A stretch of DNA of 43,996 nt from an uncultured Candidatus Marinamargulisbacteria bacterium (GTDB lineage Bacteria > Margulisbacteria > Riflemargulisbacteria > GWF2-35-9): NCBI GenBank assembly GCA_903910705.1, contig CAIWAN010000061.1, positions 1 through 43,996 of the forward strand. Reading direction: 5' to 3'. Of this stretch, positions 3,136 to 35,633 are shown one piece after another (position 1 is the stretch's first letter; every line of letters starts with the position of its first letter). Both the position numbers and the translations under genes were made by a program. The notes below the pieces were generated by a model, which saw only the letters and a list, made by a program, of their open reading frames with translations, was not told the origin of the DNA and did no database searches.

Positions 3136-3142
3136 GGCCAAT

Positions 3143-4955: not shown

Positions 4956-5427
4956 AGGTAATCTCCTTCGCCAAGTCGATGCGTATCAACGCCTCGATGG
5001 TCTTCTTGCATCCGAAAATCAAATCCTCATCTATCACAAAGTCGAAAAACTCATCGAAATTACCGCTCGAAAAGAGCAGATCAATCAAGAACTTCACCAA
5101 TTACGAGATGACTATTTTCATCTACTCAAGCAGATCGTTCTGGGGGAACGCCCTGATCAGATAACGGTGAATGAACTCATTGCGTGGGCGCCCATTTCAT
5201 TCCGAGATCCCTTAACGCTTGCTCAACAACAACTCGAAACCTTAGCGAAAAATATCCAAAAGAAAAACATCATTAATCAGGGGTTGCTCGACCAATCGAT
5301 GCGCTATGTCTCGTATATGGTGAAGAAAATGATCGAATTAACTAGTGCCCCTCAACAAACATATTGCCAACGAGGATACAGCCAGGTTCTGGGGGAACAT
5401 CAAACCCTCATGAGCGTCGTGGCATAA
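4918..5427 (+). CDS. flgN: FlgN-family flagellar export chaperone
   Basis: FlgN chaperones the hook-filament junction proteins FlgK and FlgL, whose genes follow directly. The product is about 169 residues and almost wholly alpha-helical: LLRQVDAYQRLDGLLASEN, a KVEKLIEITARKEQINQEL segment and LAKNIQKKNIINQGLL, matching the FlgN_FliT pattern. The GTG start at 4918 lies within flgM and overlaps it by 38 nt. No ATG exists further down in a suitable place, so the exact start is uncertain. The call rests on helical pattern plus position. Confidence 0.78.
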   Translation: MKQEGILTWDLLKGNLLRQVDAYQRLDGLLASENQILIYHKVEKLIEITARKEQINQELHQLRDDYFHLLKQIVLGERPDQITVNELIAWAPISFRDPLTLAQQQLETLAKNIQKKNIINQGLLDQSMRYVSYMVKKMIELTSAPQQTYCQRGYSQVLGEHQTLMSVVA

Positions 5428-5439
5428 GGAGAGAATGAC

Positions 5440-6834: not shown

Positions 6835-6847
6835 AGGAGGGTAAACG

Positions 6848-9744: not shown

Positions 9745-11175
9745 ATGCAAATTAATCATAATGTCGCAGCGTTAAATGCATGGCGCAATTTAGGGGTTTC
9801 AAGTAGTAAGCTGGGTCAGTCATTGGAGAAATTGTCGTCGGGCTATCGAATCAATCGAGGGGCGGATGATCCAGCCGGTTTATTAATTAGCGAACAGCTT
9901 CGTGCTCAGATCGGTGGGCTCGATCAAGCCACCCGAAATGCAAGCGATGCGGTTTCGATGGTGCAAACGGCAGAGGGTGCGTTGACCGAAATGAATACAA
10001 CGCTTAACAGTATTCGTTCCTTAGCGGTTCATGCGGCTAATACGGGTGCAAACGATAGTAATTCGGTTATGGCCGACCAAACCGCCGTCGATAAAGCCAT
10101 CGAATCGATGCAACGGATCGCGGTGACCACCAAGTTCGCCGGCAAATATTTGCTCGATGGGTCGTCAGGGGTTGTTCTTGGAGAAAGCACAACGACAGCG
10201 CTTACTTCCGCTACAGCGGGTAATGTTGCCGCCGCATCAGGTACGGTGTCAGCTGTCATTACGACCGCCGCAGCCGCGGGAAGTGCAGTTCTAACGGTCA
10301 GTAACTTTGCCGGTGGTGCAACCACCGCATCGGGTAATATTTCGATGTGGCTGAGTACGGGTGGCACAGCCGGAACGGTGATCAATGTTAATTATGCGTC
10401 GGCTCTCGCATCGACTGCGTTTGTCTCAAACATTAACACCGCTTTAGCGGGGGCAGGTTTCTATGCCAGCTCGAATGCATCGACAACCTTGACCTTGTAT
10501 TCCAGTAGCGTCGGGACAGCCGTTGTGGTTCAAGCCTCGAACGCAACCGTCAGTGGAACGGCGAACGTTACCGGCTCGGGTGGGGTCGATATTGCGGGAA
10601 CATTTGGTGGCACAGCCCTAACAGGAAGCGGATTAGCCCTTTATGGTTCCAGCAGTAGTGCTTGGGCCGGAACATCCTTAGTCTTCAAATCGGCAAACAA
10701 TGTTGTGGGTTCTGCGGCTACCTTGTCGGTTGTTTCGGGGATCAAGTTCTCTTTGACGGATAATGCAACAACAACGGATATCATTAGTTATGCGATAGAC
10801 AATATGCAAACGTCAAAGATCGGCATCCTGACCACCTTGGCAGGCAGTACGTTGAATGCGATCAAGAGCGGTGCAACGTATCAGCTTTCAGCCAATGCCT
10901 CAGCAGCCGTGTCGATCATTGATAAAGCGATTGCCGATGTCTCGATGGAGCGAGCCAAACTCGGTTCATTCCAAAAGTATACGTTGGAGTCGACTTTGAA
11001 TAATCTGGGGGTTACCCGAGAGAATCTGTCAGCGTCCGAATCACGTATTCGAGACGTGGATATGGCTCAAGAGATGATGGACTTTACGAAGAACCAGATC
11101 TTGGTTCAAGCCGGTACGGCGATGTTGGCTCAGGCCAATCAATTGCCTCAAACGGTTTTGAAGCTATTGCAATAG
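9745..11175 (+). CDS. fliC: Flagellin 1
   Basis: This is a filament subunit of 476 residues. The D0/D1 N-terminus (MQINHNVAALNAWRNLGVSS, LEKLSSGYRINRGADDPAGL) and C-terminus (ESRIRDVDMAQEMMDFTKNQ, AGTAMLAQANQLPQ) are canonical. The middle (about residues 155-335) is an Ala/Ser/Thr/Gly-rich variable domain. It offers many serine and threonine sites for the O-glycosylation expected from the downstream maf and nonulosonate genes. It is collinear, without gaps, with flagellin 2. Middle-domain DNA is nearly identical between the two genes. Single-gene transcription is likely: sigma-54-type promoter upstream, terminator downstream. Confidence 0.97.
   Translation: MQINHNVAALNAWRNLGVSSSKLGQSLEKLSSGYRINRGADDPAGLLISEQLRAQIGGLDQATRNASDAVSMVQTAEGALTEMNTTLNSIRSLAVHAANTGANDSNSVMADQTAVDKAIESMQRIAVTTKFAGKYLLDGSSGVVLGESTTTALTSATAGNVAAASGTVSAVITTAAAAGSAVLTVSNFAGGATTASGNISMWLSTGGTAGTVINVNYASALASTAFVSNINTALAGAGFYASSNASTTLTLYSSSVGTAVVVQASNATVSGTANVTGSGGVDIAGTFGGTALTGSGLALYGSSSSAWAGTSLVFKSANNVVGSAATLSVVSGIKFSLTDNATTTDIISYAIDNMQTSKIGILTTLAGSTLNAIKSGATYQLSANASAAVSIIDKAIADVSMERAKLGSFQKYTLESTLNNLGVTRENLSASESRIRDVDMAQEMMDFTKNQILVQAGTAMLAQANQLPQTVLKLLQ
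10261..10685 (+). repeat. Flagellin middle-domain tract shared with flagellin 2
   Basis: Three exact DNA matches to flagellin 2 lie here: 10261-10307 (47 nt), 10414-10478 (65 nt) and 10588-10685 (98 nt). All are offset by exactly 9335 bp from their partners at 19596-20020. The flanking D0/D1-coding DNA differs at many synonymous sites. This pattern suggests gene conversion between the paralogues. Confidence 0.85.
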
Positions 11176-19079: not shown

Positions 19080-20510
19080 ATGCAAATAAATAATAATGTA
19101 GCCGCTTTGAACGCATGGAGAAATTTAGGGGTTTCCAGTAACGCATTGGGGAAGAGTCTTGAAAAACTATCATCAGGATATCGAATCAATCGAGGCGCGG
19201 ATGATCCAGCTGGTCTTTTAATTAGCGAAACGCTTCGTGCCCAAATTGGTGGCCTTGATCAAGCATCTCGTAACGCAAGCGACGCCGTTTCGATGGTTCA
19301 AACCGCCGAAGGGGCCTTAACCGAAATGAATACCATGTTAAATAATATCCGTTCATTAGCTGTTCACTCGTCTAATGTGGGAGCGAATGACGCTAATGCT
19401 ATTGCAGCCGATCAAACCGCCGTTGATAAGGCGATCGAATCGATGCAGCGTATTGCAACAACCACCAAATATGCGGGTAAGAATCTATTAGATGGTTCCG
19501 CCGGTGTTGTCATCGGGGAAACAACGACGGCCGCCCTTGCTTCGGTCTCGGCAGGATCTGTCGCCGCTGCATCGGGTACGGTGTCAGCTGTGATCACGAC
19601 CGCCGCAGCCGCGGGAAGTGCAGTTCTAACGGTCAGTAACTTCGTCGGCCAATCAACCATCGCATCAGGTAATATTTCGATGTGGCTAAGCACCGGAGGC
19701 ACAGCCGGAACGGTTATCAACGTAAATTACGCGTCAGGACTTAGTTCAACTGCGTTTGTCTCAAACATTAACACCGCTTTAGCGGGGGCAGGTTTCTATG
19801 CCAGCTCGAATGCGTCAACAACCTTGACCTTGTATGCCAGTAGCGTCGGGACAGCCGTTGTTGTTCAAGCGTCGAATGCAACCGTCAGTGGAACCGCGAA
19901 TGTAACGGGTTCTGGAGGGATTGATATTGCGGGAACATTTGGTGGCACAGCCCTAACAGGAAGCGGATTAGCCCTTTATGGTTCCAGCAGTAGTGCTTGG
20001 GCCGGAACATCCTTAGTCTTTAAAGCGGCAAATAATGTTGTGGGGTCAGCCGCAACGGTGTCGGTTGTATCAGGCATTAAGTTTGCTCTGACGCAAGATG
20101 CCTCTACTGCGACTCAAATTACCTATGCGATCAGTAATATGCAAACATCTAAGATTGGTGTGGCGAGTACCTTAGCCGGTAGTACGCTTGATGCGATCAA
20201 GAGTGGCGCGACGTATCAACTTTCAGCGAACGCCTCAGGAGCGGTAACCATCATTGACCAAGCCATCTATGATGTTTCGAATGCTCGAGCCAAACTGGGT
20301 TCATTCCAGAAGTTTACACTGGAAACAACGATTAACAGCTTAAGTGTGTCTCGTGAGAATTTGGCCGCTTCCGAATCGCGTATTCGCGATGTGGATATGG
20401 CGCAAGAAATGATGAATTTCACCAAGAATCAGATATTGGTACAAGCCGGTACGGCAATGTTAGCTCAGGCAAATCAGTTGCCCCAATCGGTGCTTCAACT
20501 ATTGAAGTAG
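19080..20510 (+). CDS. Flagellin 2
   Basis: This second filament subunit is 476 residues, the same length as flagellin 1 and without gaps against it. The terminal domains carry the same signatures (LEKLSSGYRINRGADDPAGL; SRIRDVDMAQEMMNFTKNQ). The middle Ala/Ser/Thr/Gly-rich domain is nearly the same at both protein and DNA level. Differences cluster at the D1/variable boundary (about residues 155-165) and in the segment before the C-terminal helices. It is preceded by its own sigma-28 promoter and CsrA hairpin, and followed by flaG, fliD and fliS, so it is probably a co-regulated or alternate filament protein. Confidence 0.97.
   Translation: MQINNNVAALNAWRNLGVSSNALGKSLEKLSSGYRINRGADDPAGLLISETLRAQIGGLDQASRNASDAVSMVQTAEGALTEMNTMLNNIRSLAVHSSNVGANDANAIAADQTAVDKAIESMQRIATTTKYAGKNLLDGSAGVVIGETTTAALASVSAGSVAAASGTVSAVITTAAAAGSAVLTVSNFVGQSTIASGNISMWLSTGGTAGTVINVNYASGLSSTAFVSNINTALAGAGFYASSNASTTLTLYASSVGTAVVVQASNATVSGTANVTGSGGIDIAGTFGGTALTGSGLALYGSSSSAWAGTSLVFKAANNVVGSAATVSVVSGIKFALTQDASTATQITYAISNMQTSKIGVASTLAGSTLDAIKSGATYQLSANASGAVTIIDQAIYDVSNARAKLGSFQKFTLETTINSLSVSRENLAASESRIRDVDMAQEMMNFTKNQILVQAGTAMLAQANQLPQSVLQLLK
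19596..20020 (+). repeat. Flagellin middle-domain tract shared with flagellin 1
   Basis: Exact matches are 19596-19642 (47 nt), 19749-19813 (65 nt) and 19923-20020 (98 nt), the partners of the tracts at 10261-10685. As direct repeats about 9.3 kb apart they could support recombination across the accB-recJ-addBA block. Confidence 0.85.
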
Positions 20511-20994: not shown

Positions 20995-23900
20995 ATGTCT
21001 ACAGTAAGTAGTAGTGTTAGCGGACTTGCTTCGGGTCTCGACACGGAAAGTATTATCACCGGCTTAATGTCGATCAAGCGTCAAGCTGTCGATAAGCTCA
21101 CCGCAAAAAGTGAGACTGAAACGGCTAAGCAAAGCACGTGGTCATCGATCATGTCGAGTGTGCTCGGGCTACAACTTTCAGCTTACAACCTTTCAAAAAC
21201 ATCCACCTTTGATGCAAGAAAGCTGACCATTAGTAACGAATCTGTCCTTTCCGCAACGGTTTCTGGCTCTGCGGCACAGGGATCCTATCAATTCATGGTC
21301 GATCGTTTGTCCACCTCACATCAATTTAACTCGGTTGGATACCATGATTACGATACAACACCCGTTGGCGCGGGCACGATGACGTTCGAAATGGGGAATG
21401 GCGATGTTAAAAAGCAGACCAATCTGAATGAATTAAACGGGGGATCGGGTGTTACTCGGGGGATGATCAAGATCACGGATCGGGAGGGGCAAAGCGCCAA
21501 TGTCGATCTAACCCATGTGATGACGATCGACGATGTATTGCAGGCGATCAATACCGCCAATATCAATGTGTCGGCCAAAATCAATAGTGCCGGAACGGGT
21601 CTCGATATCTCCGCAACGGGGTCTGGGCTTGGAACCTTGAAAGTAGAAGATACCAGTCAAGGTACGACGGCTCTGGATCTTGGGATCAGGGGAAGTATGG
21701 CTGGGGGCACGTTGAGTGGAACGACAGTCTCTTATTTAAGTAGCGCCTCAAGTTTAGCCGCGCTTAATGATGGGTTGGGCGTCAGCCAAAAGGGGTTCAC
21801 GATCAATGGAACCAGCATTGCTCTTTCATCAGCGAATACCTTGGGTGATGTGGTCACCGCTATCAATAATCAATCGGGGACGACCAGTGTCACGGCAGCG
21901 CTCCGTGCTGATGGACAAGGGATCCAATTAACAGGGGTGGGCTTTGTGGTCACAGAAACGGGTGGAACGTCCGCCAAGGACCTCGGGATCATTCATTTAA
22001 CAAGTTCCGGCAATGGCGACAACTTGTTAGCGGGGATGGATTCGGTTTTGCTGAAAAATTTAAAGGGAGCCAGTGGCGTTTCGGGGACCGACTTCACCAT
22101 TCAAGGGTTGGTGAGCAAAGATATCAATATCGCAGGAATGACCTCGCTAAGCCAGATCATGGATGCCATCAATGCGCAAAACACAAACACGCAGGTCGCG
22201 GCTCGGTATAATCAAGCCAATAATGGACTCGAGCTTTATCGTTCAGACGGCTCCGCATTTACGGTTGCAGAAAAATCAGGGACAACGGCCGCCTCTTTAG
22301 GCATTCTCGGGACATCTTCGGGGGGTGTTTTGAGCGGCTCTGATCTTGAGGTCGCCTACTTAAGCAAAGCGACCGTGCTTTCAACGATGAATCAGGGCGA
22401 TGGGGTTCGAAAAGGCTCTATTGCCATTACAAACAAATCGGGTAATGCCTTTACCGTTAACCTATCATCGTCGTCCATCAAAACACTGGGTGACGTGATC
22501 GATAGCATTAATACGGCGGGTTCTGCCTACCATATCACGGCAGCGCTCAATGCCACAGGGGACGGGCTTCTCCTTGCTGATGGATCGGGCGGGACGGGGA
22601 ATCTGTCGATTGCCGAATCGAGTAACGGCCATATGGCGGCTGATCTGGGTTTACTTGGCAGCTCAACAGGGCTGACGTTTGATGGGAGTTTTGAAAAATC
22701 CATTACCATTTCCAGTACAAACACCCTGCAAGATGTGCGAGACGCGATCAACGCTTTGGGGATAAATCTCAAAGCAACGATCATTAACGATGGCAGCAAC
22801 AGTCCGTATCGATTATCCATTGCAAGTACAAAGTCTGGGGTTGTTGGACGTATGGTGGTGGGGAGTACGGTGGACAGTCTTAACCTGAATGAATCGGTCG
22901 CCGCTCAGAACGCGACCTTGATCATGGGCGACCCAACGGCAGAGAATGCGTTATTTGTAGCGAGTTCAACCAATACCGTTTTGAGCTTTATTCCGGGCGT
23001 GACCTTGTCATTAAAGACAGCCAGCTCGACCCCTGTCACCTTGGCCATCACAACGGATCCCGCTGCGGTCACGACGGGCATCAAAGATTTTGTGGATAAA
23101 TACAATAAAGCCATTACTGCCGTCAATGACCAGCTCACGTATGATTCGGCCAATAAGTCCAGTGGTCCTCTTTTTGGCGATTCAACGGTGATGCTCCTGC
23201 AACAGCAGATATATAATACGATCAATCGTTCTGTCTCAGGGGTTTCTGGAAACATCAAGTCGGCCGGCCAAGTGGGGCTTAATTTAGGACTCGATGGAAT
23301 GCTAAGCCTCGACGAGACAACCCTGACGTCGGTGTTAGATTCTGACCTCAGCGGGGTTGTTGATTTCTTTACGTTTCAGAACAACAATGCCCTGGCGGCG
23401 ACTGCAACGGCAAGTGCAACGGATAGCCCTTGGACGATCGCGGGGGCTCATGATGGGAATACCAAGATCTCCGATTTTGCATCAGGAACGACGGGGTGGC
23501 AGGCTGATAATGGAGCGTCCTACCAACTTGATTTTGGTTCAAGAAAAGAATTGACCAGTGTCCGAATTTTGGGTGTTGATACCCTTACAACGGATATCCT
23601 GAAGAGTTTTGATGTCCAGTATTGGAATGCCGGTACGTCTGCCTGGACAACGTATCGAAGTGTGACCAGTAATGCCTCAAAGGATATTTCTATTTTCTTT
23701 CCAACCGGTATCGTTACCGATAAGATCCGCCTAAATAATATGCAGGGAACCGGCTCAAAGGCAAAATTGCTCGATCTTCAAGCCATGGAGTCAACAGGGT
23801 TTGCCTCAACCTATGATCTAACCTTGTCAAAGATCACTGACTCGGGCACAGGGATGATCGCTTCCGCCATGGATGGTTCGGTCGAGGCACAATCAACCTT

Positions 23901-24075
23901 AGCCGATTCGATCACCAGTATGAACGAACGACTGACTATCGAAGAGACCCGCCTTCGAGCCCAGTACACCAAACTAGAGACTCTGATCAATGACTTAAAA
24001 AATCAATCAAGTTCCTTTACGAGTCAACTCACTGGGATCAATAATGCATGGAATTACAAAAGTTCATCGGGATAA
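20995..24075 (+). CDS. fliD: Flagellar cap protein FliD with inserted discoidin-like domain
   Basis: FliD caps the filament tip and folds incoming flagellin. The N-terminus (SSSVSGLASGLDTESIITGL) and the C-terminal coiled coil (MNERLTIEETRLRAQYTKLE) are canonical. At 1026 residues it is about twice the common length. The middle has about five Flagellin-IN-like modules, each with a pattern such as TLGDVVTAINN followed by GxGLxL (about residues 155-640). An extra domain at about 797-933 is unlike FliD: it contains AHDGNTK, GWQADNGASYQLDFGSRKEL, a VRILGVD strand and KIRLNN. That is the layout of F5/8 type C (discoidin/CBM32-like) carbohydrate-binding domains. I infer a cap with adhesin function. 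Confidence 0.92.
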   Translation: MSTVSSSVSGLASGLDTESIITGLMSIKRQAVDKLTAKSETETAKQSTWSSIMSSVLGLQLSAYNLSKTSTFDARKLTISNESVLSATVSGSAAQGSYQFMVDRLSTSHQFNSVGYHDYDTTPVGAGTMTFEMGNGDVKKQTNLNELNGGSGVTRGMIKITDREGQSANVDLTHVMTIDDVLQAINTANINVSAKINSAGTGLDISATGSGLGTLKVEDTSQGTTALDLGIRGSMAGGTLSGTTVSYLSSASSLAALNDGLGVSQKGFTINGTSIALSSANTLGDVVTAINNQSGTTSVTAALRADGQGIQLTGVGFVVTETGGTSAKDLGIIHLTSSGNGDNLLAGMDSVLLKNLKGASGVSGTDFTIQGLVSKDINIAGMTSLSQIMDAINAQNTNTQVAARYNQANNGLELYRSDGSAFTVAEKSGTTAASLGILGTSSGGVLSGSDLEVAYLSKATVLSTMNQGDGVRKGSIAITNKSGNAFTVNLSSSSIKTLGDVIDSINTAGSAYHITAALNATGDGLLLADGSGGTGNLSIAESSNGHMAADLGLLGSSTGLTFDGSFEKSITISSTNTLQDVRDAINALGINLKATIINDGSNSPYRLSIASTKSGVVGRMVVGSTVDSLNLNESVAAQNATLIMGDPTAENALFVASSTNTVLSFIPGVTLSLKTASSTPVTLAITTDPAAVTTGIKDFVDKYNKAITAVNDQLTYDSANKSSGPLFGDSTVMLLQQQIYNTINRSVSGVSGNIKSAGQVGLNLGLDGMLSLDETTLTSVLDSDLSGVVDFFTFQNNNALAATATASATDSPWTIAGAHDGNTKISDFASGTTGWQADNGASYQLDFGSRKELTSVRILGVDTLTTDILKSFDVQYWNAGTSAWTTYRSVTSNASKDISIFFPTGIVTDKIRLNNMQGTGSKAKLLDLQAMESTGFASTYDLTLSKITDSGTGMIASAMDGSVEAQSTLADSITSMNERLTIEETRLRAQYTKLETLINDLKNQSSSFTSQLTGINNAWNYKSSSG

Positions 24076-24094: not shown

Positions 24095-24517
24095 ATGAGT
24101 ATCAGTAATTATCTTGAAAACGAAGTGATGTCCGCCTCTCCTTCAAAACTGGTGATCATGATGTATGATGGAGCGATAAATTTCTTACTCAATCTTGAAA
24201 AACTCGACTGGCAAAAAGATTGCGAAAAGAAAGGTCAACTTATCAATAAAGCGTTGGCTATTATTTCCGAACTACAAGTGACGTTAAAAATGGATGTAAA
24301 AGATGTCTCTGAGCCGCTATTTGCGCTGTACTCCTATATGCAGCAACGACTGATCGAGGCTCATGTGAATAATGATCCGATCCTCGTGACCGAAGTGATC
24401 GAAATGCTTCGAGGATTACGTCATTCATTCGCAACGGTATCCATGCCTGCGCCCGTTCCTTCTGAAGAACCCCAGACCGACGAATATGCGCGAGAAGGTT
24501 TTATGATGGCATGCTAG
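24095..24517 (+). CDS. fliS: Flagellar export chaperone FliS
   Basis: FliS binds the flagellin C-terminus and keeps it monomeric before export. The 140-residue protein shows the FliS pattern: YLENEVMSASPSKLVIMMYDG at the N-terminus, then KGQLINKALAIISELQVTL and a LYSYMQQRLIEAHVNNDP helix. The C-terminal tail after about residue 115 is Pro/Glu-rich. GGAGG precedes the ATG. Gene order fliD-fliS is standard. The stop overlaps the next gene (ATGCTAG). Confidence 0.93.
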   Translation: MSISNYLENEVMSASPSKLVIMMYDGAINFLLNLEKLDWQKDCEKKGQLINKALAIISELQVTLKMDVKDVSEPLFALYSYMQQRLIEAHVNNDPILVTEVIEMLRGLRHSFATVSMPAPVPSEEPQTDEYAREGFMMAC

Positions 24518-24783
24518 TTATTTCGAGTTTTTTGCAGTCCGATATTAAACCGCTCGTGGCCAGATTGATCTACGATCCCAACGAAACGAACACCATCCAT
24601 TTGATCGTCGATCGACTCACCACTCTTGGCGAGCAGATTCAGACGCGGATCGTCGAGGGAACCTTTAAAGTAGACGATTTTCAACGGTATAATGCATGGC
24701 TGAGCACCTTTCTGGCGCGACTAAAAACGAGCGATTACGTTAGGATATTGCAAGGGCTGCATAACAAGGACCTTCCAAAATGA
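24511..24783 (+). CDS. Small helical protein in the fliT position
   Basis: I do not recognise this 90-residue protein. It overlaps fliS by 7 nt and the maf gene by 4 nt (ATGA), so it is translationally coupled on both sides. It appears mainly helical (VDRLTTLGEQIQTRIVEGTF, YNAWLSTFLARL) with no signal peptide. In many operons the gene after fliS is fliT, a small helical FliD chaperone. Position and size fit, but I see no firm FliT motif. Confidence 0.65.
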   Translation: MLVISSFLQSDIKPLVARLIYDPNETNTIHLIVDRLTTLGEQIQTRIVEGTFKVDDFQRYNAWLSTFLARLKTSDYVRILQGLHNKDLPK

Positions 24784-26663
24784 ACGCTATCTATAAAAAG
24801 AACATAGCCTGTGCCCAACAATACAAGCCGCAAATCGTCGATTTAATGAAGAACGCATCGCTTATCACGACGTTTGAGTTTGATCTGGCCATCATGCCCA
24901 CCAAGCAGCCGGTTGAACAAGCGAATTATATCCTTGAGCAGGAGTACCTTCAAAAAAAAGAAAGCATCGATCGACATATTTTCGGGCTTGTTTTCTGTCT
25001 CGATTACTTCCTGCTACAAGGTCTTTTTCGCCGATATACTTGGTATACGAGGCTTTTTGTTATTTTCCCAAGCGCGGATTTTTTCTTTACACTCCTTCAT
25101 CGACATGATTTTACTGTGCTGATCAAAGACCCCAAATTTATGCCCTTAGCGTTTAATGATCTATCCCTGATCGAGGCGAGCCTTAAACATAACTTGAACC
25201 AATTCGACTTTTATACGACAGGCCTTCAATTCTTTGAATATCAGCCGTTTCGAGCCCTATTTCCCGAGACGGTGGAGGTTGTGAGTAAATATGCCAAAGA
25301 TGTCACGTTATTGAGTGCGGCCAATGTTAACACGCTCCTCATCTATGGATATGGCATCATGGTCAATAATGTTCGGAACTTGAATCATTTTCTGCGATAT
25401 CCTGATGTGAGCGTGCTCGATAATGTGTGGGAAGGAAAGCCGATCGTTTGTGTGTCTGCAGGCCCATCGCTGAGCAAGAACATCGCCTTTCTGAAAAAAA
25501 TTCAAAACGACGTTTATATTATCGCCATGACCGCGGTGCTTCGACCGTTACTCGCCGCGGGGATCAAACCTGACATGATCACCATGGTGGACATGAGTGA
25601 ACAGGTCATGCGCTACCTTGAGGGGATCGATACCTCGGATATGTACTCGGTCATTGAACTCGGTTGCTTTCACGAGATCGTAGATAAATATCCCGCGAAG
25701 TACATTTTCTCGATGTCTGCGATACGAACCAGTCAGTTCATGAACGATCTGGTCGGCAAGTTAAATATGAATATTAATGAAAAGTTTATTCTACCGGGAT
25801 CATTAACGGTCGCGACCCTTTCAATTCTCCTTGCGAAGGTGATGGGGGCGAGCAAGATCATCTTGTTGGGGCATGACCTCGCCTATTCAGATAAAACACA
25901 TGTGAAAGGCAGCCGATTCTCCCATCCGACCAAAATTATTGAGGTCAATGGGCGAAGAACGTTTGAAAACAAACTTTATGATGGAGAGGTGTTGGAGTAT
26001 TCAGAACTGGTTCCCGTCAAAGGGTTCTGGGGGGATCAAGTGGATTCAACGTATTCGTTTATTACCTTTCGAGAGTATATCGAAAAGGTGATCAAAACCT
26101 TCGGAATGGACGTCGTCAACGCGACCGAGGGGGGTAGCTATATCGAGGGTACGGAACATATCACCCTTAAAGAGGCCTATCAACGCTATATCAAGCCCCA
26201 TATTGCAACAACAAAAGCGTTACAGATCCCCTCTCTCCGACAAGATTACAACTATCACGAATTGCCGGATGTCATCACCCATGTCGAAGACATGATTGCC
26301 CTTTACGAATCCATGAATGCTCAAGCCGTTGACATGATGGCTTTAGTCGAGCAGAACCAAAACGAAACAACGACCCCCGAGCAAGCCAAAGCGTACGACC
26401 AGCTCATCACAGAATTTGTTTCAAAATATGAAGAGGATATGAATAAGATCGGTCAGATCGGTCATCCAGGTCAATTTCTTTTTCGTCATATCATCAATTC
26501 CAACACATCAAAGCATTCGGATGTGGACACGTATGCTGATGCAAGGAATAAGCTGGTGTTAATGTCGAGTACCGTGCTTGAATGTACGGGCGTTTTTACG
26601 GACGAACTGAAAGGCTTAGTGACAAAACTTAAGGATCTATATGATGAGCTTGGCCAGAACTAA
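24780..26663 (+). CDS. maf: Motility accessory factor (Maf), DUF115 glycosyltransferase
   Basis: Maf proteins transfer nonulosonic acids (pseudaminic or legionaminic) from CMP-sugars onto serine and threonine of flagellin in the cytoplasm. The 627-residue product has the DUF115 (MptE-like) core: GKPIVCVSAGPSLSKNIAFL (about 219-238), then IIAMTAVLRPLLAAGIKPD and MITMVDMSEQ. LLGHDLAYSDKTHVKG (about 360-375) follows. The family's usual length is 600-700. It sits directly after the filament genes and just before the nonulosonate pathway, which names both acceptor and donor. It overlaps legB by 23 nt. Confidence 0.9.
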   Translation: MNAIYKKNIACAQQYKPQIVDLMKNASLITTFEFDLAIMPTKQPVEQANYILEQEYLQKKESIDRHIFGLVFCLDYFLLQGLFRRYTWYTRLFVIFPSADFFFTLLHRHDFTVLIKDPKFMPLAFNDLSLIEASLKHNLNQFDFYTTGLQFFEYQPFRALFPETVEVVSKYAKDVTLLSAANVNTLLIYGYGIMVNNVRNLNHFLRYPDVSVLDNVWEGKPIVCVSAGPSLSKNIAFLKKIQNDVYIIAMTAVLRPLLAAGIKPDMITMVDMSEQVMRYLEGIDTSDMYSVIELGCFHEIVDKYPAKYIFSMSAIRTSQFMNDLVGKLNMNINEKFILPGSLTVATLSILLAKVMGASKIILLGHDLAYSDKTHVKGSRFSHPTKIIEVNGRRTFENKLYDGEVLEYSELVPVKGFWGDQVDSTYSFITFREYIEKVIKTFGMDVVNATEGGSYIEGTEHITLKEAYQRYIKPHIATTKALQIPSLRQDYNYHELPDVITHVEDMIALYESMNAQAVDMMALVEQNQNETTTPEQAKAYDQLITEFVSKYEEDMNKIGQIGHPGQFLFRHIINSNTSKHSDVDTYADARNKLVLMSSTVLECTGVFTDELKGLVTKLKDLYDELGQN

Positions 26664-27642
26664 GGTCTGTGTTACCGGTGCCTGTGGCTTTATTGGAAGC
26701 CATTTGGTCGAGCGTTTGGTTGCCGAAGGGGCGCAGGTTCGAGCGTTTGTGTATTACAATTCCTTTAATCGATGGGGTTGGCTTGATCGACTGCCCTCCG
26801 AGGTGCTTTCAAAGATCGAGGTAATGACCGGAGATATCCGTGACCCCCACGGTGTGCGCGAAGCCCTAAAGGGCGTCGATATCGTTTTTCATCTGGCGGC
26901 GTTGATCGCTATTCCGTTCAGTTATCATTCTCCCGATAGTTATGTCGATACCAATGTCAAAGGAACCCTCAATGTTTTACAAGCCGCTCGAGATCTAGGG
27001 ACAAAACGAGTCCTTGTGACCTCGACGTCAGAGGTTTATGGTACGGCGCAATTCGTTCCCATTGACGAGACACATCCCCGCCAAGGCCAATCTCCCTATT
27101 CAGCGACCAAGATCGGTGCGGATGCGATGGCCGACGCGTTCTATCGGAGTTTTGGGTTGCCGATAACCATCGTTCGTCCCTTTAATACCTATGGCCCCCG
27201 TCAGTCGGCAAGGGCCATCATCCCGACGATTATCACCCAACTCCTAGAGGGCAGGACCGAGATCAAATTGGGGGCGCTTCATCCCACACGCGACCTCGTT
27301 TATGTTAGCGATACCGTGAGTGGATTTATCGATATGGCCACGTCCGAAAAGACGATCGGCACCGACATCAATATTGCAACACAAAGTGAGATCTCGATGG
27401 GTGATCTGGCTCAAAAGCTGATCGATAAGATCAATCCCAACGCGACGATCCTGTCGGATGATATCCGTTTGCGCCCCAAAAAGAGCGAGGTGGAGCGTTT
27501 GTTCGGCAGCCATACAAAACTTAAAGCCTTAACCGCATGGGAACAACACGTTGATCTCGACAAAGGGCTAGATTTAACCATTGATTGGTTTCGGGATAAA
27601 GACAATTTAGCCCAGTATAAAACGCATATTTACAATGTATAA
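26641..27642 (+). CDS. legB: NAD-dependent sugar 4,6-dehydratase, LegB-type
   Basis: This SDR-family nucleotide-sugar dehydratase is the predicted first step toward the 2,4-diacetamido-trideoxyhexose precursor. The 333-residue protein has the Rossmann motif VTGACGFIGSHL near the N-terminus. The catalytic STSEVYG and YSATK (Y-x3-K, about residues 151-155) and RPFNTYGPRQS are typical of extended SDRs. Context argues for LegB (retaining, legionaminic route) over PseB: the hydrolysing epimerase-type gene downstream belongs to the Leg/Neu route. In Campylobacter, LegB uses a GDP-sugar, consistent with the PtmE-like gene in this operon. Substrate is inferred. Confidence 0.8.
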   Translation: MMSLARTKVCVTGACGFIGSHLVERLVAEGAQVRAFVYYNSFNRWGWLDRLPSEVLSKIEVMTGDIRDPHGVREALKGVDIVFHLAALIAIPFSYHSPDSYVDTNVKGTLNVLQAARDLGTKRVLVTSTSEVYGTAQFVPIDETHPRQGQSPYSATKIGADAMADAFYRSFGLPITIVRPFNTYGPRQSARAIIPTIITQLLEGRTEIKLGALHPTRDLVYVSDTVSGFIDMATSEKTIGTDINIATQSEISMGDLAQKLIDKINPNATILSDDIRLRPKKSEVERLFGSHTKLKALTAWEQHVDLDKGLDLTIDWFRDKDNLAQYKTHIYNV

Positions 27643-28777
27643 GACCATTACGGACTTTATAAAGCACACCTACAACACCCCGCCGCCGATCAACCTCCAT
27701 GAGCCTCGTTTTATCGGAAACGAGAAGAAATATCTCGCTGAATGTATTGATTCCACCTTTGTTTCCTATGTCGGGGCTTTTGTAACCTCCTTTGAGGATA
27801 GCGTTAAGGCCTTTACCGGTTCAAAATATGCCGTGGCCATGACCAATGGCACACTTGCTTTGCATCTGGCGTTAAGGGTGTGTGGCGTTTTGCCCGAGGA
27901 TGAAGTGATCACCCAAGCCCTGACATTTGTCGCTACGGCGAATGCGATATCGTATATCGGGGCTCACCCGATCTTTTTGGATAGCGATCTCGACACATTG
28001 GGACTGTCCCCCGAGAAATTGCTCACCTTTTTAAAGAACGAGACCCAAAAAAAAGAAGATGGCAATACGTATAACAAAAAAACAGGGCGACGGATCTCGG
28101 CGTGTGTTCCCGTTCATGTTTTCGGACATCCCGCACGCATAGCCGATATCGTTAGGATCTGTGCTGATTACAACCTCGTCGTTGTCGAGGATGCGGCCGA
28201 GTCACTGGGCAGTTTTTACCAATCTCAGCACACCGGTACGTTCGGGTTAGCGAGCGTGCTGAGCTTTAATGGCAATAAAACCATCACAACGGGGGGCGGG
28301 GGGATGTTGCTGACAAATGATGAAATGATCGCCACGTCCGCCAAGCATTTATCGACAACGGCGAAGATCCCTCATCCGTGGGCCTTTGAACATGATGAGA
28401 TCGGTTATAATTATCGAATGCCCAATCTAAATGCCGCCGTGGGATGCGCTCAAATGGAGACGCTTGATCTGTTCCTATCCAAGAAACGCGAACAGGCCGA
28501 ACGCTACGCGACGTTCTTTGCCCAGATCGGGGTCGATTTTATTGTCGAACCGAAGGATAGCCGCTCGAATTACTGGCTAAACACCATCATGCTTAACGAT
28601 CGGACCGAGCGAGATGCCTTTCTAGCGTACAGCCATAGTCAGGGCGTGATGACACGTCCCGTATGGCGGCTTATGTCGCAACTCCCGATGTACAAAGACG
28701 CCCTCTGTGGCGATCTAGAGCAAGCCGAACATCTCGAAGCGAGACTGGTCAATCTTCCGAGCAGTGTAAGGGTATAG
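27635..28777 (+). CDS. legC: PLP-dependent sugar aminotransferase, LegC-type
   Basis: This is a DegT/DnrJ/EryC1-family aminotransferase of 380 residues, predicted to aminate C4 of the 4-keto sugar made by LegB. Family marks are SKYAVAMTNGTLALHLALR and EVITQALTFVATANAI. VEDAAESLGSFY holds the PLP-contacting Asp. SFNGNKTITTGGGGML holds the Schiff-base lysine at about residue 214. EIGYNYRMPNLNAAVGCAQ is the usual active-site region. The ATG overlaps legB by 8 nt. The LegC subfamily is assigned from context. Confidence 0.82.
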   Translation: MYKTITDFIKHTYNTPPPINLHEPRFIGNEKKYLAECIDSTFVSYVGAFVTSFEDSVKAFTGSKYAVAMTNGTLALHLALRVCGVLPEDEVITQALTFVATANAISYIGAHPIFLDSDLDTLGLSPEKLLTFLKNETQKKEDGNTYNKKTGRRISACVPVHVFGHPARIADIVRICADYNLVVVEDAAESLGSFYQSQHTGTFGLASVLSFNGNKTITTGGGGMLLTNDEMIATSAKHLSTTAKIPHPWAFEHDEIGYNYRMPNLNAAVGCAQMETLDLFLSKKREQAERYATFFAQIGVDFIVEPKDSRSNYWLNTIMLNDRTERDAFLAYSHSQGVMTRPVWRLMSQLPMYKDALCGDLEQAEHLEARLVNLPSSVRV

Positions 28778-28778
28778 G

Positions 28779-29369
28779 ATGAGAACAAATCTATTATTGA
28801 TCGGAGCAGGGGGGCATTGCCGTTCGGTCATTGATGTTATCGAGAGTTCCCAGCAATACCACATCGTGGGGATACTCGATGTTCCAGAAAAGGTCGGGCA
28901 GGTCGTCTTGGGCTATGATGTGATCGGAACCAATCAAGACATGCCAACGCTGATCAAACAAACCCCTAACGTGGTGATCACGGTGGGACAAATTCACTCT
29001 CCCGCGGTTCGGATCAAACTCTACGATTTAGCAAAAGAGTGCGGCGCGGCATTCCCTGTCATCCTTTCACCTCACGCGTATGTTTCCCGTCACGCGTCGA
29101 TCGACGAAGGCACGGTTGTGATGCATCATGCGATGGTTAATGCGGGCGCGGTCGTGGGTAAAAATTGTATTCTCAATACACGAGCGTGCCTTGAACATGA
29201 TTCGGTCATCGGGGATCATTGCCATCTCTCTACCGGCGTGATCGTTAACGGCGGGGTCACGGTCGGAGCGAGGACCTTTATCGGCAGTGGCAGTGTGACA
29301 AAAGAAGGGATCACCCTTCCATCAGATTCGTTTATCAAGGCGCAAAGCCTCGTTCGAGGCCCAATATGA
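28779..29369 (+). CDS. legH: Sugar O/N-acetyltransferase, NeuD/PglD/LegH-type
   Basis: This 196-residue acetyltransferase is predicted to acetylate the C4 amino group made by LegC. The N-terminal part is a Rossmann-like PglD_N domain (LLIGAGGHCRSVIDVIE). The C-terminal part is a left-handed beta-helix of hexapeptide repeats (ASIDEGTVVMHHAMVNAGAV, then CLEHDSVIGDHCHLSTGV). The His in LEHDSVIGDH fits the catalytic base. It is 1 nt after legC and overlaps the next gene by 4 nt. NeuD proteins of sialic-acid clusters look alike. Confidence 0.8.
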   Translation: MRTNLLLIGAGGHCRSVIDVIESSQQYHIVGILDVPEKVGQVVLGYDVIGTNQDMPTLIKQTPNVVITVGQIHSPAVRIKLYDLAKECGAAFPVILSPHAYVSRHASIDEGTVVMHHAMVNAGAVVGKNCILNTRACLEHDSVIGDHCHLSTGVIVNGGVTVGARTFIGSGSVTKEGITLPSDSFIKAQSLVRGPI

Positions 29370-30376
29370 CGCCCGTTCCATCGGTCTTCATTATTGCCGA
29401 GGCAGGGGTGAACCATAACGGGGATCTGGTGCTCGCAAAACGGTTGGTGGAGGCTGCTAAGCGTGCAGGGGCCGATGCGGTCAAGTTCCAAACCTTTCAA
29501 GCCGATCAATTGGTGACCCCCAAAGCAAGTAAAGCCAACTATCAGATCGAAAATACGTCACAGGGTTCTCAATACGAGATGCTAAAAAAACTAGAACTGG
29601 ATGGTGTCGCGCATCAGGCCTTGATAGAGCATTGCCGTCTTTTGGACATTCAATTCTTGTCTGCGCCGTTTGATATTCCGTCCATTGCCTTGTTGGATCG
29701 ATTGAAGGTGTCGATGTATAAAATCCCCTCAGGTGAGATCACGGATCTGCCCTATTTAAGGGCCATGGCGAGCTACCAAAAAAATATCATCCTATCCACG
29801 GGCATGTCCACGCTCTTCGAGGTCAAAAGCGCGCTTGAGGCATTAATAAAAGCGGGACAACCCGAAGAAAAAATATCGTTACTGCATTGTACGACCGAGT
29901 ACCCCGCCCCGTTTGAAGAGGTGAATCTACGCGCGATGCTCACCCTCAAGCAGGCGTTCGGCTTGCCCGTAGGCTACTCGGATCATACACGGGGGGTAGC
30001 CATATCGATCGCGGCCGTTGCGCTCGGGGCGTCCATTATCGAAAAACATTTAACACTGGATAAAACCATGGAAGGCCCCGATCACAAAGCATCCCTTGAT
30101 CCTCAAGAATTTGCCGAGATGGTTCAGGCCATTCGCCATGTCGAGCAGTCATTGGGTGATGGGCAAAAAGTTCCCTCGGCCTCTGAAATGAAGAACCTCC
30201 TGATCGCTAGAAAAAGTCTGGTCGCGTCTCGACCCATTGAAGTGGGTGAGGTCTTTTCCGAAGACAATATCACAGCAAAGCGCTCAGGGGCCGGACTAAG
30301 CCCGATGAGGTGGGATGACCTTATGGGGTCTCGGTCAACGCGCACGTATCGTATCGATGAGGCTATCATTCTATGA
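29366..30376 (+). CDS. legI: N-acetylneuraminate/legionaminate synthase
   Basis: This enzyme condenses phosphoenolpyruvate with a 6-deoxy-diacetamido hexose or N-acetylmannosamine to form a nonulosonic acid. The 336-residue NeuB-family protein has the TIM-barrel start IIAEAGVNHNGDLVLAKRLV and ADAVKFQTFQADQLVTP. MYKIPSGEITDLPYL, the LLHCTTEYPAP motif and GYSDHTRGV follow. A C-terminal SAF (antifreeze-like) domain starts near residue 275 (LLIARKSLVASRPIEVGEVF). Family membership is certain. Legionaminic rather than sialic product is inferred from legB and legC. Confidence 0.88.
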   Translation: MTPVPSVFIIAEAGVNHNGDLVLAKRLVEAAKRAGADAVKFQTFQADQLVTPKASKANYQIENTSQGSQYEMLKKLELDGVAHQALIEHCRLLDIQFLSAPFDIPSIALLDRLKVSMYKIPSGEITDLPYLRAMASYQKNIILSTGMSTLFEVKSALEALIKAGQPEEKISLLHCTTEYPAPFEEVNLRAMLTLKQAFGLPVGYSDHTRGVAISIAAVALGASIIEKHLTLDKTMEGPDHKASLDPQEFAEMVQAIRHVEQSLGDGQKVPSASEMKNLLIARKSLVASRPIEVGEVFSEDNITAKRSGAGLSPMRWDDLMGSRSTRTYRIDEAIIL

Positions 30377-31521
30377 AGATCTGCGTATTCACTGGGACAC
30401 GGGCTGAATATGGTTTGCTGATGCACCTGATGAAAGAGATCCAGTCCGACCCATCCTTGACCCTTCAACTTTTAGTCAGTGGAACTCATTTATCCGCTGA
30501 GTTTGGTTCAACCTACCAAGAGATCGAAAAAGAGGGCTTTACCCTTGATAAAAAAGTAGAGATCCCCCTACAGGACGATTCGCCACAAGGCGTGATAAAC
30601 GCCATGGGGAGTGGGTTGATCGGGTATGGTGACGCGCTGTCACAATTGAGTCCCGATATCGTTGTTGTTTTAGGCGATCGATATGAGGCGTTTGCCTTTG
30701 CGGTGGCGGCGATGGTTCTTTGCATCCCGATCGCGCACTTGCATGGGGGCGAGGCCACCTATGGCGCTATGGATGAGGCGATGCGGCATTCGATCACCAA
30801 AATGAGCCATCTGCATTTTACGGCGACCGAGTCTTATCGTCAGCGCGTCATTCAATTAGGCGAAGATCCAACGCGCGTGTTTAATGTGGGGGCGATCGGC
30901 TTAGATAATATCAACAATATGGCCTTACTATCACGCGAACAGCTTGAGCAAGACCTTAACCTCAAATGGGCTACACGTAATCTCTTGGTGACGTTCCATC
31001 CGGTAACACTTGAACGCGATCATTCTGTCGAACCCTTTAATAACCTCTTGTCCGTGCTGAACGATCTAGAAAACACGCAGATCATCTTTACAAAAGCGAA
31101 TGCCGATGCAGAGGGTCGACGTATTAATATGATGATTGACGACTATGTGGCCAAGAACCCTCAAAAGGCTCTTGCTTTTACCTCGTTGGGGTCATTACGA
31201 TATTTATCCCTGATGCAATATGTTGATGCTGTGGTGGGTAATTCGTCGAGTGGGCTTATCGAGACCCCCTCGTTCAAACGGGGTACGATCAATATTGGCG
31301 ATCGACAAGCGGGTCGGATCAAAGCCGCCAGTGTGATCGATTGTGAGCCAACAGTGGCGAGTATCAAACAGGCGTTTGATCAATTGTTTTCGGCGGACTT
31401 CCAAGCCTCCCTGACGGGTGTCGAGAATCCTTATGGCAACGGGGGGACCGCACCAAAGATAAAACACATCCTCAAAACCTATCCGTTGGTTAATATCCTG
31501 AAAAAGAGATTTTATGTTTAA
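30373..31521 (+). CDS. legG: Nucleotide-sugar 2-epimerase (hydrolysing), NeuC/LegG-type
   Basis: This enzyme removes the nucleotide and inverts C2, giving the free manno-configured sugar used by the synthase. The 382-residue protein starts with VFTGTRAEYGLLMHLMKEI, the NeuC hallmark. VVLGDRYEAFAFAVAAM, HLHGGEATYGAMDEAMRHSI and VGNSSSGLIETPSFKRGTIN with IGDRQAGR follow. Such an epimerase belongs to the legionaminic and sialic routes. The pseudaminic route would instead need a PseG-type hydrolase, which is absent here. It overlaps the neighbours on both sides. Confidence 0.87.
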   Translation: MKICVFTGTRAEYGLLMHLMKEIQSDPSLTLQLLVSGTHLSAEFGSTYQEIEKEGFTLDKKVEIPLQDDSPQGVINAMGSGLIGYGDALSQLSPDIVVVLGDRYEAFAFAVAAMVLCIPIAHLHGGEATYGAMDEAMRHSITKMSHLHFTATESYRQRVIQLGEDPTRVFNVGAIGLDNINNMALLSREQLEQDLNLKWATRNLLVTFHPVTLERDHSVEPFNNLLSVLNDLENTQIIFTKANADAEGRRINMMIDDYVAKNPQKALAFTSLGSLRYLSLMQYVDAVVGNSSSGLIETPSFKRGTINIGDRQAGRIKAASVIDCEPTVASIKQAFDQLFSADFQASLTGVENPYGNGGTAPKIKHILKTYPLVNILKKRFYV

Positions 31522-32365
31522 GCGTATTATTCCTCGACTCGATATTAAGGGGCCAAACCTCGTCAAAGGGATTCATCTTGAAGGGCTGAGGGTGTTGGGT
31601 AAACCCGAGCAGTTCGCAAAATATTATTATGAGCAGGGTGCGGATGAACTCATGTTCATCGACTGTGTCGCCAGCCTCTATGAGCGCAATAGCCTAATGG
31701 ATATTATCCGTAAAACCGCCAAAGAGATCTTTATCCCTTTAACCGTAGGGGGTGGGATCAGAACGCTAGAGGATATAAAAAATATTTTACGAGCGGGAGC
31801 CGACAAGGTCTCCCTCAATACGGCGGCGATACGCAATCCCGAACTGATCCGAGAGGCATCGAATCGATTCGGTTCCTCGACGGTTGTTGTGACGATCGAG
31901 GCCATACAACACGCCGATGGGTTGTATTATGCCTATATTGATAATGGCCGAGAGGAAACCGGCAAAGAGGTTGTTGCGTGGGCGAAAGAATGTGAACAAT
32001 TGGGTGCGGGCGAGTTGCTGATTACTTCCGTAGACAAAGAAGGAACCGGCTCTGGGGCGAATATCGATCTGATCAACAAACTGACCGCTGGACTCACGAT
32101 CCCTGTGATCGCTCATGGCGGTATCGGCAACAAAGAACACGTCGCCGAGGTGTTTTCGACGACATCGGTGAGTGCCGTCGCGTTGGCTTCGATCTTGCAC
32201 TATGACGCGGTCGCGAACATCCATTATGAGAAAGCGGATTATTCCCTCGAAGGGAATACCAGTTTCTTAAAACAAGGCGCGAGTTCGGGTCGGTTTAGTC
32301 CTTTTCGTATCAGTGATATCAAGGCTCATTTGGTGCAGCAGCATATCGATTGTAGGGTTGATTGA
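31514..32365 (+). CDS. HisF-like cyclase subunit of a sugar amidination system
   Basis: This is a 283-residue HisF-family TIM barrel. It keeps the Asp11 equivalent (IIPRLDIKGPNLVKG) and the LLITSVDKEGTGSG loop. In place of the canonical VVAIDAK around Asp130 it has VVVTIEAI, so this catalytic Asp is Glu and the following Lys is Ile. The Cys of IIACLD is Arg. With the HisH-like gene and N-acetyl-sugar amidotransferase next to it, it matches the hisF2-hisH2-wbpG set of surface-sugar loci. There HisH/HisF supply ammonia. A role in histidine synthesis is unlikely. Confidence 0.82.
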   Translation: MFKRIIPRLDIKGPNLVKGIHLEGLRVLGKPEQFAKYYYEQGADELMFIDCVASLYERNSLMDIIRKTAKEIFIPLTVGGGIRTLEDIKNILRAGADKVSLNTAAIRNPELIREASNRFGSSTVVVTIEAIQHADGLYYAYIDNGREETGKEVVAWAKECEQLGAGELLITSVDKEGTGSGANIDLINKLTAGLTIPVIAHGGIGNKEHVAEVFSTTSVSAVALASILHYDAVANIHYEKADYSLEGNTSFLKQGASSGRFSPFRISDIKAHLVQQHIDCRVD

Positions 32366-32366
32366 T

Positions 32367-33002
32367 ATGGGGACAAAGAAGATCGTTATCGTTGATTATG
32401 AAATGGGCAATCTCCACAGCGTGGATAATGCCTGCAAATTGCTTGGCTATGAAACAACGATCTCGTCTGATCGGGACACCATCCGCTCCGCTTCAGCATT
32501 GATCTTGCCGGGAGTGGGTGCGTTCGGTCATGCGATGGCCAATCTAGACGCCTTAGGGCTGATCGATCCGATCAAGGACCATATCCAACGGGGCAACCCT
32601 TTTCTAGGGGTTTGCTTAGGGTTTCAGTTGTTGTTCGAAGAAAGTTCAGAATTTGGTGTCCACAAGGGGCTGGCTATTCTTAAAGGAACCGTCGATCGTT
32701 TCCCCGCGTCGAGTCAGGGGCAACCATTAAAGGTTCCCCACATGGGGTGGAATCGACTCCAAATCGTGCAGGATAATCGATTCAGCCAAGGACTCAACCC
32801 GAACGAGTTTATGTACTTTGTTCATTCGTATTACACAAACCCCACCAATCCAAGTATAATATTTTCAAAAACAACCTATGAGGGGTTTGAGTACTGTTCG
32901 TCGGTTTCGCAGGAAAATATATTAGCGGTTCAATTCCATCCCGAGAAGAGTTCAATAAAAGGGCTGAAATTATTAAACAATTGGTTAACATCTATCGAGT
33001 AA
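32367..33002 (+). CDS. HisH-like glutamine amidotransferase
   Basis: This class I glutamine amidotransferase of 211 residues releases ammonia from glutamine. The triad is visible: Cys in FLGVCLGFQLLFEESSE (about residue 82) and His-Glu in AVQFHPEKSS (about 190-192). The start VIVDYEMGNLHSVDNACKLL is a HisH hallmark. I chose ATG at 32367, two bases after the hisF-like stop; the open frame runs back to 32313 but those 18 residues are not family-like. It should pair with the HisF-like barrel and feed the next enzyme. Confidence 0.86.
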   Translation: MGTKKIVIVDYEMGNLHSVDNACKLLGYETTISSDRDTIRSASALILPGVGAFGHAMANLDALGLIDPIKDHIQRGNPFLGVCLGFQLLFEESSEFGVHKGLAILKGTVDRFPASSQGQPLKVPHMGWNRLQIVQDNRFSQGLNPNEFMYFVHSYYTNPTNPSIIFSKTTYEGFEYCSSVSQENILAVQFHPEKSSIKGLKLLNNWLTSIE

Positions 33003-33012
33003 AGGAGTGGTT

Positions 33013-34221
33013 ATGAGTAACGAATTAGAGGCCTATTTTGGATTGCCCCAAGACGTTAAGTTTTGCAAGAAATGTGTCATGTCGAATCAACGCCCCATGT
33101 CCGAAGTCGAGTTCAAACACTCCATAACCACCAAAAAACGAACTCTGAATTTTGATGAGAACGGTGTGTGTGACGCGTGTAATACCGCCGAGGTCAAAGA
33201 AAACATCGATTGGGATCAACGAGAAAAGGAATTGATCGCCCTCCTTGATAAATATCGAAGAACAGACGGTGCTTACGATTGTTTGGTGCCGGGGAGTGGA
33301 GGCAAGGACAGTGCGTTCCAGTCCCATATCTTGAAGGCCAAATACGGAATGCATCCCTTGACGCTGACATGGCCGCCTATTTTGTATACCGATTATGGTT
33401 ACAAGAACTTTAAGAATTGGTTGAATGTCGGGGGATTCGATAACATCAGTTATAACCAAAACGGGAAAGTTATGAGAGAGTTGACCCGTCTTTCGATAGA
33501 AAACATTTTCCATCCGTTCCAGACCTTTATCTTTGGGCAAAAGAATGTTGCACCCAAGTTCGCAGCAAAATTTGATATTCCGTTGGTGTTTTATGGCGAG
33601 AACGAGGCCGAATATGGCAACCCCATCGCCGACAACCAAACCTCCCTGCGAGATAAGTCCTACTATTCTTTTAATAATTTAGATGAGCTATTTTTAGGGG
33701 GTGTGTCGGTCAAAGCGTTGATCGATCAATATGGGTTCAATTTAGCCGACCTCCGTTCATTTCTACCTGCGACCGAAGACGAATTGAAGGGCAAAGATAT
33801 CCAAGTCCATTATTTGGGCTACTATTTAAAGTGGGTGCCTCAAGAGGCGTACTATTACGCGGTCGAGCATACCGGCTTCCAAGCCAGACCGTTCAGAACC
33901 CAAGGAACGTACAGCAAATACAACAGTATTGATGACAAGATCGATGACCTCCATTACTACACCACCTTCATTAAGTTCGGGATCGGACGCGCGACGTATG
34001 ATGCGTCGCAAGAGATCCGTAACAAACATTTGCTCCGAGAAGAGGGCGTTGCCTTGGTTCAAAAGTTCGATGGAGAATTCCCTGATCGTTATTTTAACGA
34101 GGTGATGGATGCGATTGGCATGACCCCAGCACGTTTCTTCGAATTGGCTGATAAATTTAGATCCCCCCATTTATGGAAAAAAGAAAATGGAGAATGGAAA
34201 TTAAGACACAAGGTGTCCTAG
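33013..34221 (+). CDS. N-acetyl sugar amidotransferase (WbpG/PseA-like)
   Basis: This PP-loop ATP pyrophosphatase converts an acetamido group of a sugar to acetamidino, using ammonia from the HisH/HisF pair. The ATP motif is VPGSGGKDSAFQSH (about residues 91-104). Zinc-type cysteines are in FCKKCVMSNQRP and NGVCDAC. The start is ATG at 33013 with AAAGGAG (33001-33007) 5 nt upstream. The length (402 residues) fits the family. In Campylobacter a PseA enzyme makes the acetamidino form of pseudaminic acid. Here I infer an acetamidino-legionaminic product. Confidence 0.85.
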   Translation: MSNELEAYFGLPQDVKFCKKCVMSNQRPMSEVEFKHSITTKKRTLNFDENGVCDACNTAEVKENIDWDQREKELIALLDKYRRTDGAYDCLVPGSGGKDSAFQSHILKAKYGMHPLTLTWPPILYTDYGYKNFKNWLNVGGFDNISYNQNGKVMRELTRLSIENIFHPFQTFIFGQKNVAPKFAAKFDIPLVFYGENEAEYGNPIADNQTSLRDKSYYSFNNLDELFLGGVSVKALIDQYGFNLADLRSFLPATEDELKGKDIQVHYLGYYLKWVPQEAYYYAVEHTGFQARPFRTQGTYSKYNSIDDKIDDLHYYTTFIKFGIGRATYDASQEIRNKHLLREEGVALVQKFDGEFPDRYFNEVMDAIGMTPARFFELADKFRSPHLWKKENGEWKLRHKVS

Positions 34222-34234
34222 AAGGAGATCAGCT

Positions 34235-35623: not shown

Positions 35624-35633
35624 TGGGGATGAA

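What the first reader, a model, noticed from the sequence alone, without database searches (positions are those of the whole stretch)
20995..24075. FliD cap protein with an inserted discoidin-like domain and five IN-type modules
FliD is usually 450-700 residues. This one is 1026. Seen: repeated modules ending in DVxxAIN-type helices, and at about residues 797-933 a segment with AHDGN, YQLDFGSRKE, VRILGVD and KIRLNN, which is the order of strands in F5/8 type C domains. Inference: the filament tip may bind host or particle glycans, turning the flagellar cap into a lectin-like adhesin.
Basis: partly seen in the sequence, partly recalled or inferred. Interest (0 to 1): 0.75.

Follow-up and report, generated by a model that had tools for sequence, protein, structure and literature searches.

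The report
Flagellar cap protein with discoidin insert
The protein that caps this bacterium's flagellum carries an extra sugar-binding-type (discoidin, F5/8 type C) domain plugged into its stalk, a fixed trait of its whole class that also turns up in scattered Firmicutes, so the flagellum tip may double as a sticky probe, although its ligand is unknown.

Summary
Observation confirmed. The ORF at 20995-24075 is a 1026-aa FliD, between flagellin/flaG and fliS. Residues ~796-934 are a true F5/8 type C domain: Pfam PF00754 E=3e-11 in the whole protein and 2e-12 alone; its profile matches the galactose-binding CBM32 of NanJ (2v72, E=2e-6), and so does the predicted fold (Foldseek rank 1, E=6e-7). 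There are five IN modules. The genome belongs to Candidatus Marinamargulisbacteria. All 8 FliD-bearing genomes of its phylum (74 searched) have the domain at the same site. That site is the helix 4-5 loop of FliD leg domain D1, not the D2/D3 head. C. jejuni FliD carries an unrelated-looking ~140-residue "D4" insert in the same interval, outside the cap cavity and proposed to bind heparin. New here: five Bacillota FliDs also carry an F5/8 domain at this site, but their backbones do not form one clade with each other or with the window family (AU p<=0.0007), so the slot was filled or emptied repeatedly. The adhesin reading is plausible but unproven: four of the five canonical CBM32 galactose-contact residues are replaced. 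Verdict: a real new variant of a known kind (FliD with a plug-in domain); ligand unknown.

The parts
20995..24075 (+). fliD, flagellar filament cap protein, 1026 aa
   Evidence: ORF; FliD_N + FliD_C; full-length model matches Salmonella, E. coli and Campylobacter FliD
21031..21321 (+). FliD_N: D0-N helix and start of D1 (residues 13-109)
   Evidence: PF02465 E=6.9e-21; helix 17-67 predicted
21457..22914 (+). head region with five Flagellin_IN-type modules (motifs at residues 180, 285, 387, 500, 580)
   Evidence: PF07196 five stretches; motif scan and alignment
22951..23373 (+). D1 part of FliD_C up to helix alpha4 (residues 653-793)
   Evidence: PF07195; PDB FliD alignments; helices 689-714, 730-744, 774-793
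23380..23802 (+). inserted F5/8 type C (discoidin/CBM32-like) domain, residues 796-936; Pfam core 804-919
   Evidence: PF00754; PDB profile match 2v72; AlphaFold2 pLDDT 73.6, pTM 0.72; Foldseek top hit 2v72 E=6e-7
23803..24072 (+). D1 helix alpha5 and C-terminal D0 coil (residues 937-1026)
   Evidence: FliD_C second stretch 23785-24000; helix 954-1021 predicted
19080..20510 (+). flagellin, upstream neighbour
   Evidence: PF00669 and PF00700
20584..20919 (+). flaG, immediately upstream
   Evidence: PF03646 E=9.7e-17
24095..24517 (+). fliS, immediately downstream
   Evidence: PF02561 E=9.4e-32

Best explanation
It is a bona fide FliD filament cap whose leg domain D1 carries an accessory F5/8 type C (CBM32-like) beta-sandwich in the loop between helices alpha4 and alpha5. 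The flanking helices are intact, so the protein should still pentamerise and chaperone flagellin (inferred). By analogy with the C. jejuni D4 insert in the same interval, the module should sit on the outside of the cap, away from the cavity, so that five copies are displayed at the filament tip (inferred). The likely job is binding a ligand outside the cell, a glycan or polyanion on a particle or host surface, so that the tip can attach or probe (inferred, not shown). The loop behaves as a plug-in slot that different lineages fill with different domains.
For: Domain. Clean insertion: ordinary FliDs align on either side (A3 positions up to ~154 and from ~290), with directly adjacent bases in several genomes. 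Fixed in 8 of 8 FliD-bearing genomes of the phylum, all of one class. In the four nearest relatives the insert is about as conserved as, or better conserved than, the flanking regions (78, 68, 62, 56% against 80, 54, 51, 48% for D0-C); dN/dS about 0.13 against the 80%-identical relative, with dS near saturation. It is the only F5/8 domain in the window's genome. Also present in five Bacillota FliDs at the same slot. Precedent for outward D1 inserts: PMC7316729, PMC12221982. In P. aeruginosa D2 and D3 are dispensable for filament formation and FliD binds mucin (PMC8533109 and its references).
Against: No ligand is known. Four of five canonical galactose contacts are replaced. The domain's place in the assembled cap is by analogy; the full-length model has low confidence in the insert (pLDDT about 28-80 over 796-936), so orientation could not be measured. 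Some CBM32 modules bind no sugar (PMC3313936).
Confidence: 0.5

Rival explanations
1. The module works at home: it contacts the outer, probably glycosylated domains of the cell's own flagellin or FlgL, steadying or spacing the cap on a legionaminic-acid-decorated filament rather than binding foreign surfaces.
For: A legionaminic-type sugar cluster (LegB, LegC, NeuD, NeuB, NeuC, amidotransferase WbuX/WbuZ, cytidylyltransferase) and a PseD-like glycosylation protein follow fliD-fliS directly. C. jejuni D4 of one subunit lies between D3 of its neighbour and FlgL (PMC12221982).
Against: The domain is absent from most sampled FliDs. Glycosylation of the window's flagellin is only inferred from the gene cluster. 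The Bacillota carriers were not checked for such clusters.
Confidence: 0.25
2. The module is a bulky, antigenically variable or structural spacer without a specific ligand, kept because the D1 loop tolerates inserts.
For: The same loop holds other domains elsewhere: in three Pseudomonadota FliDs of 699-907 aa an IN-like beta module with no F5/8 match, in C. jejuni D4. Canonical sugar contacts are lost.
Against: Retained in all 8 genomes of the class; in the window's family it is about as conserved as or better conserved than the flanks and under purifying selection. The domain type recurs on unrelated FliD backbones.
Confidence: 0.2
3. It coordinates a membrane sheath at the tip, like Vibrio FliD D4.
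For: Vibrio FliD D4 deletion leaves empty sheath extensions (PMC13106801). The window has P-ring genes, so this is an outer-membrane flagellum (flgI, flgA).
Against: Vibrio D4 is helical and modelled on top of the cap, next to D3; the window's insert is a beta-sandwich in D1. No evidence of a sheath.
Confidence: 0.05

Closest known systems
FliD (HAP2) filament cap protein, e.g. Salmonella 9GNZ, E. coli 5H5V
   Same: FliD_N, FliD_C, D0-D1 helices, IN-type head, genomic place between flaG and fliS
   Different: 1026 aa; extra IN modules in the head and an F5/8 domain in the D1 alpha4-alpha5 loop
Campylobacter jejuni FliD with D4 (6SIH, 9GSX)
   Same: About 140 extra residues in the same interval of FliD_C (one profile alignment of 373 chain residues against 232 in Salmonella); the insert lies in the D1 bundle (PMC7316729)
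   Different: D4 is not found by the window's F5/8 profile even at E<=10; its fold was not compared here
CBM32 / F5/8 type C domains, nearest C. perfringens NanJ CBM32 (2V72)
   Same: Fold and strand order; Asp-Gly-Asn motif; conserved Trp; whole-length profile match E=2.4e-6
   Different: H, R, N and F of the canonical galactose site replaced by T832, V861, T866, K922; carried by a flagellar protein instead of an enzyme
F5/8-bearing FliDs of Bacillota (L073, L074, L075, L076, L084)
   Same: Same domain type in the same D1 loop
   Different: 608-649 aa, fewer IN modules; backbones lie among plain Bacillota FliDs; not found described in the literature searched
Vibrio/Helicobacter FliD with D4 or D4-D5
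   Same: Accessory FliD domains
   Different: Vibrio D4 is helical, on top of the cap and linked to the sheath (PMC13106801)

Membership tests
FliD filament cap | FliD_N and FliD_C domains over their cut-offs | tested here: met
   75.1 and 127.8 bits against 24.8 and 25.4
FliD filament cap | D0-D1 helices at both termini, head in between, fold like solved caps | tested here: met
   Helices 17-67 and 954-1021; Foldseek to 9gnz, 6sih, 5h5v at E<1e-12
FliD filament cap | Pentamer at the filament tip that promotes flagellin folding | not testable with these tools
   Needs microscopy or genetics
F5/8 type C domain | Match to PF00754 over the gathering score | tested here: met
   43.8 bits against 28.2
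F5/8 type C domain | Jelly-roll beta-sandwich | tested here: met
   Model m1eb7e2c49861, pTM 0.72, ten strands; top PDB hit 2v72, TM 0.66/0.70
Galactose-binding CBM32 | Canonical contacts H, aromatic, R, N, F (PMC3313936) | tested here: not met
   Aligned residues T832, W835, V861, T866, K922; one of five kept
CBM32 (any specificity) | Demonstrated carbohydrate binding | not testable with these tools
   Needs glycan array or calorimetry
C. [quoted passage not shown]
   Insert between alpha4 (ends ~793) and the C-terminal helix (starts ~954)
C. jejuni-type D4 FliD | D4 domain itself homologous | tested here: inconclusive
   6sih and 9gsx not found by the domain profile at E<=10; no fold comparison of D4 alone

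The most novel reading that the evidence does not exclude
The alpha4-alpha5 loop of FliD D1 is a general plug-in slot at the flagellar tip, into which lineages have repeatedly swapped ligand-binding modules. In Marinamargulisbacteria and several Bacillota the module is an F5/8 lectin-type domain that makes the cap a five-headed adhesin or surface probe.
Probability: 0.4. Interest if true: 0.72.

Novelty: new variant of a known kind. Interest (0 to 1): 0.55.

Why it matters
Flagellar tips are known to stick to mucin and heparin in a few pathogens, but the part responsible is mostly unknown and the C. jejuni D4 insert has no assigned function. A recognisable binding fold in the same D1 interval, fixed across a class of uncultured aquatic bacteria and recurring on unrelated FliD backbones in Bacillota, makes the idea of a modular adhesive cap directly testable. 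It also gives a handle on how Marinamargulisbacteria, known mainly from sequences and including an animal symbiont (PMC6784892), may find surfaces or hosts.

Tried and rejected
Chance or mis-call: rejected. Ordinary IN or Ig-like module in 797-933: rejected, no Flagellin_IN match there and a CBM32-like fold. Insert in the D2/D3 head: rejected, it is in D1. Single origin of all F5/8-FliD backbones: rejected, AU p=0.00015; Bacillota five as one clade: rejected, p=0.0007 (quick tree; the groups were named after the tree was seen). Single origin of the F5/8 domains themselves: not rejected, p=0.19, but not shown (long branches). Viral or phage relatives of the domain: none found in viral contigs or phages. 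Plasmid relatives: none for the window domain; three for the Bacillota type, none checked to be FliD. Wider screens at strict thresholds found no spanning match in 399 Pseudomonadota, 58 Bdellovibrionota (48 with FliD-like matches), 347 Actinomycetota (44 with matches) and 97 other genomes in the class of G667; divergent F5/8 inserts could be missed. Literature: no paper held with FliD plus discoidin or FliD plus galactose-binding domain; the papers with FliD plus carbohydrate-binding module were seen as titles and abstracts only.

Full report
What is there. The ORF 20995-24075 encodes a 1026-residue FliD. It sits in a flagellar region: flgF, flgG, flgA, flgI, flgK and flgL at 344-8077, two flagellins, flaG just upstream, fliS just downstream. 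Pfam finds FliD_N, two stretches of FliD_C, five Flagellin_IN stretches and an F5/8 type C domain at 804-919. The nearest named record, 80% identical, is an uncultured Candidatus Marinamargulisbacteria MAG.

The domain is real. Alone it scores 1.7e-12 to PF00754; all eight homologous domains hit the NedA-like F5/8 model and seven hit PF00754. A profile of the eight finds the C. perfringens NanJ CBM32 (2v72) over its whole length at 2.4e-6. AlphaFold2 with only two aligned rows gives a beta-sandwich (pLDDT 73.6, pTM 0.72), and Foldseek puts the same 2v72 first among solved structures (E=6e-7, TM 0.66/0.70), followed by neuropilin, CASPR2 and other CBM32 domains.

Where it is. The full-length model and profile matches show an ordinary FliD leg on both sides. 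A model of the C-terminal half built from the class matches FliDs without the insert in two pieces, up to position ~154 and from ~290, which lie next to each other in those genomes. With the helix naming of PMC8533109 the insert lies between D1 helices alpha4 and alpha5. I infer that this loop is at the head-proximal end of the leg. C. jejuni FliD has an extra D4 in the D1 bundle (PMC7316729); by profile alignment it has about 141 more residues than Salmonella in this same interval. Its D4 lies away from the cap cavity (PMC12221982) and was postulated to account for heparin binding (PMC7316729). The window's domain profile does not find C. jejuni FliD at E<=10, so homology of the two inserts is not claimed.

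How widespread. Of 74 genomes of the phylum, 8 have FliD, all of one class, and all 8 have the insert at the same place. In the window's family the insert is about as conserved as or better conserved than the flanks, and dN/dS is about 0.13 (dS near saturation). In Bacillota, four of 300 sampled genomes and one further relative have an F5/8 domain in the same loop. Most close relatives of one of them (L073) have plain FliDs of about 450-510 residues. On a FliD backbone tree without the insert columns, the class forms one clade while the Bacillota five are scattered among plain FliDs; joining all carriers is rejected (p=0.00015), as is joining the Bacillota five (p=0.0007). The F5/8 domains themselves could be one clade (p=0.19) but this is not shown. 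So the slot has been filled, emptied or swapped more than once. Three Pseudomonadota FliDs have a different, IN-like beta module in the same place.

What it does. The intact flanking helices imply normal capping (inference). Against a simple galactose lectin, the canonical contacts H, R, N and F are T832, V861, T866 and K922 here; only the aromatic (W835) is kept (PMC3313936). CBM32 specificities vary and some members bind no sugar, so the ligand is open. A legionaminic-type nonulosonic acid cluster with an acetamidino-type amidotransferase lies directly downstream, which keeps binding to the organism's own glycosylated filament as a serious rival.

Verdict. Observation confirmed, interpretation partly supported. 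It is a new variant of a known kind: a FliD with an accessory domain in D1, the domain type and its recurrence across two phyla being the new part as far as the literature held here shows.

Noticed in passing
24780-37421: Legionaminic-type nonulosonic acid and flagellar glycosylation island directly after fliD-fliS: PseD/Maf-like, LegB, LegC, NeuD, NeuB, NeuC, WbuZ/HisF-like, glutamine amidotransferase, WbuX, B12-radical SAM, CBS plus nucleotidyltransferase, cytidylyltransferase.
   Followed up: partly
9745-11175 and 19080-20510: Two flagellins of identical length (476 aa) separated by recJ and helicase/nuclease genes (AddA/RecB-like).
   Followed up: no
L008:274-3816: The FliD of a more distant genome of the same class is 1180 aa, about 150 residues longer than the window's, mostly extra sequence in the head.
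   Followed up: no
L070, L071, L072: Pseudomonadota FliDs of 774, 907 and 699 aa carry a different beta module, IN-like in sequence, in the same D1 loop.
   Followed up: partly
The genome search: Many FliDs in the phylum of G076 (Actinomycetota) are 600-1070 aa, suggesting further uncharacterised inserts.
   Followed up: no
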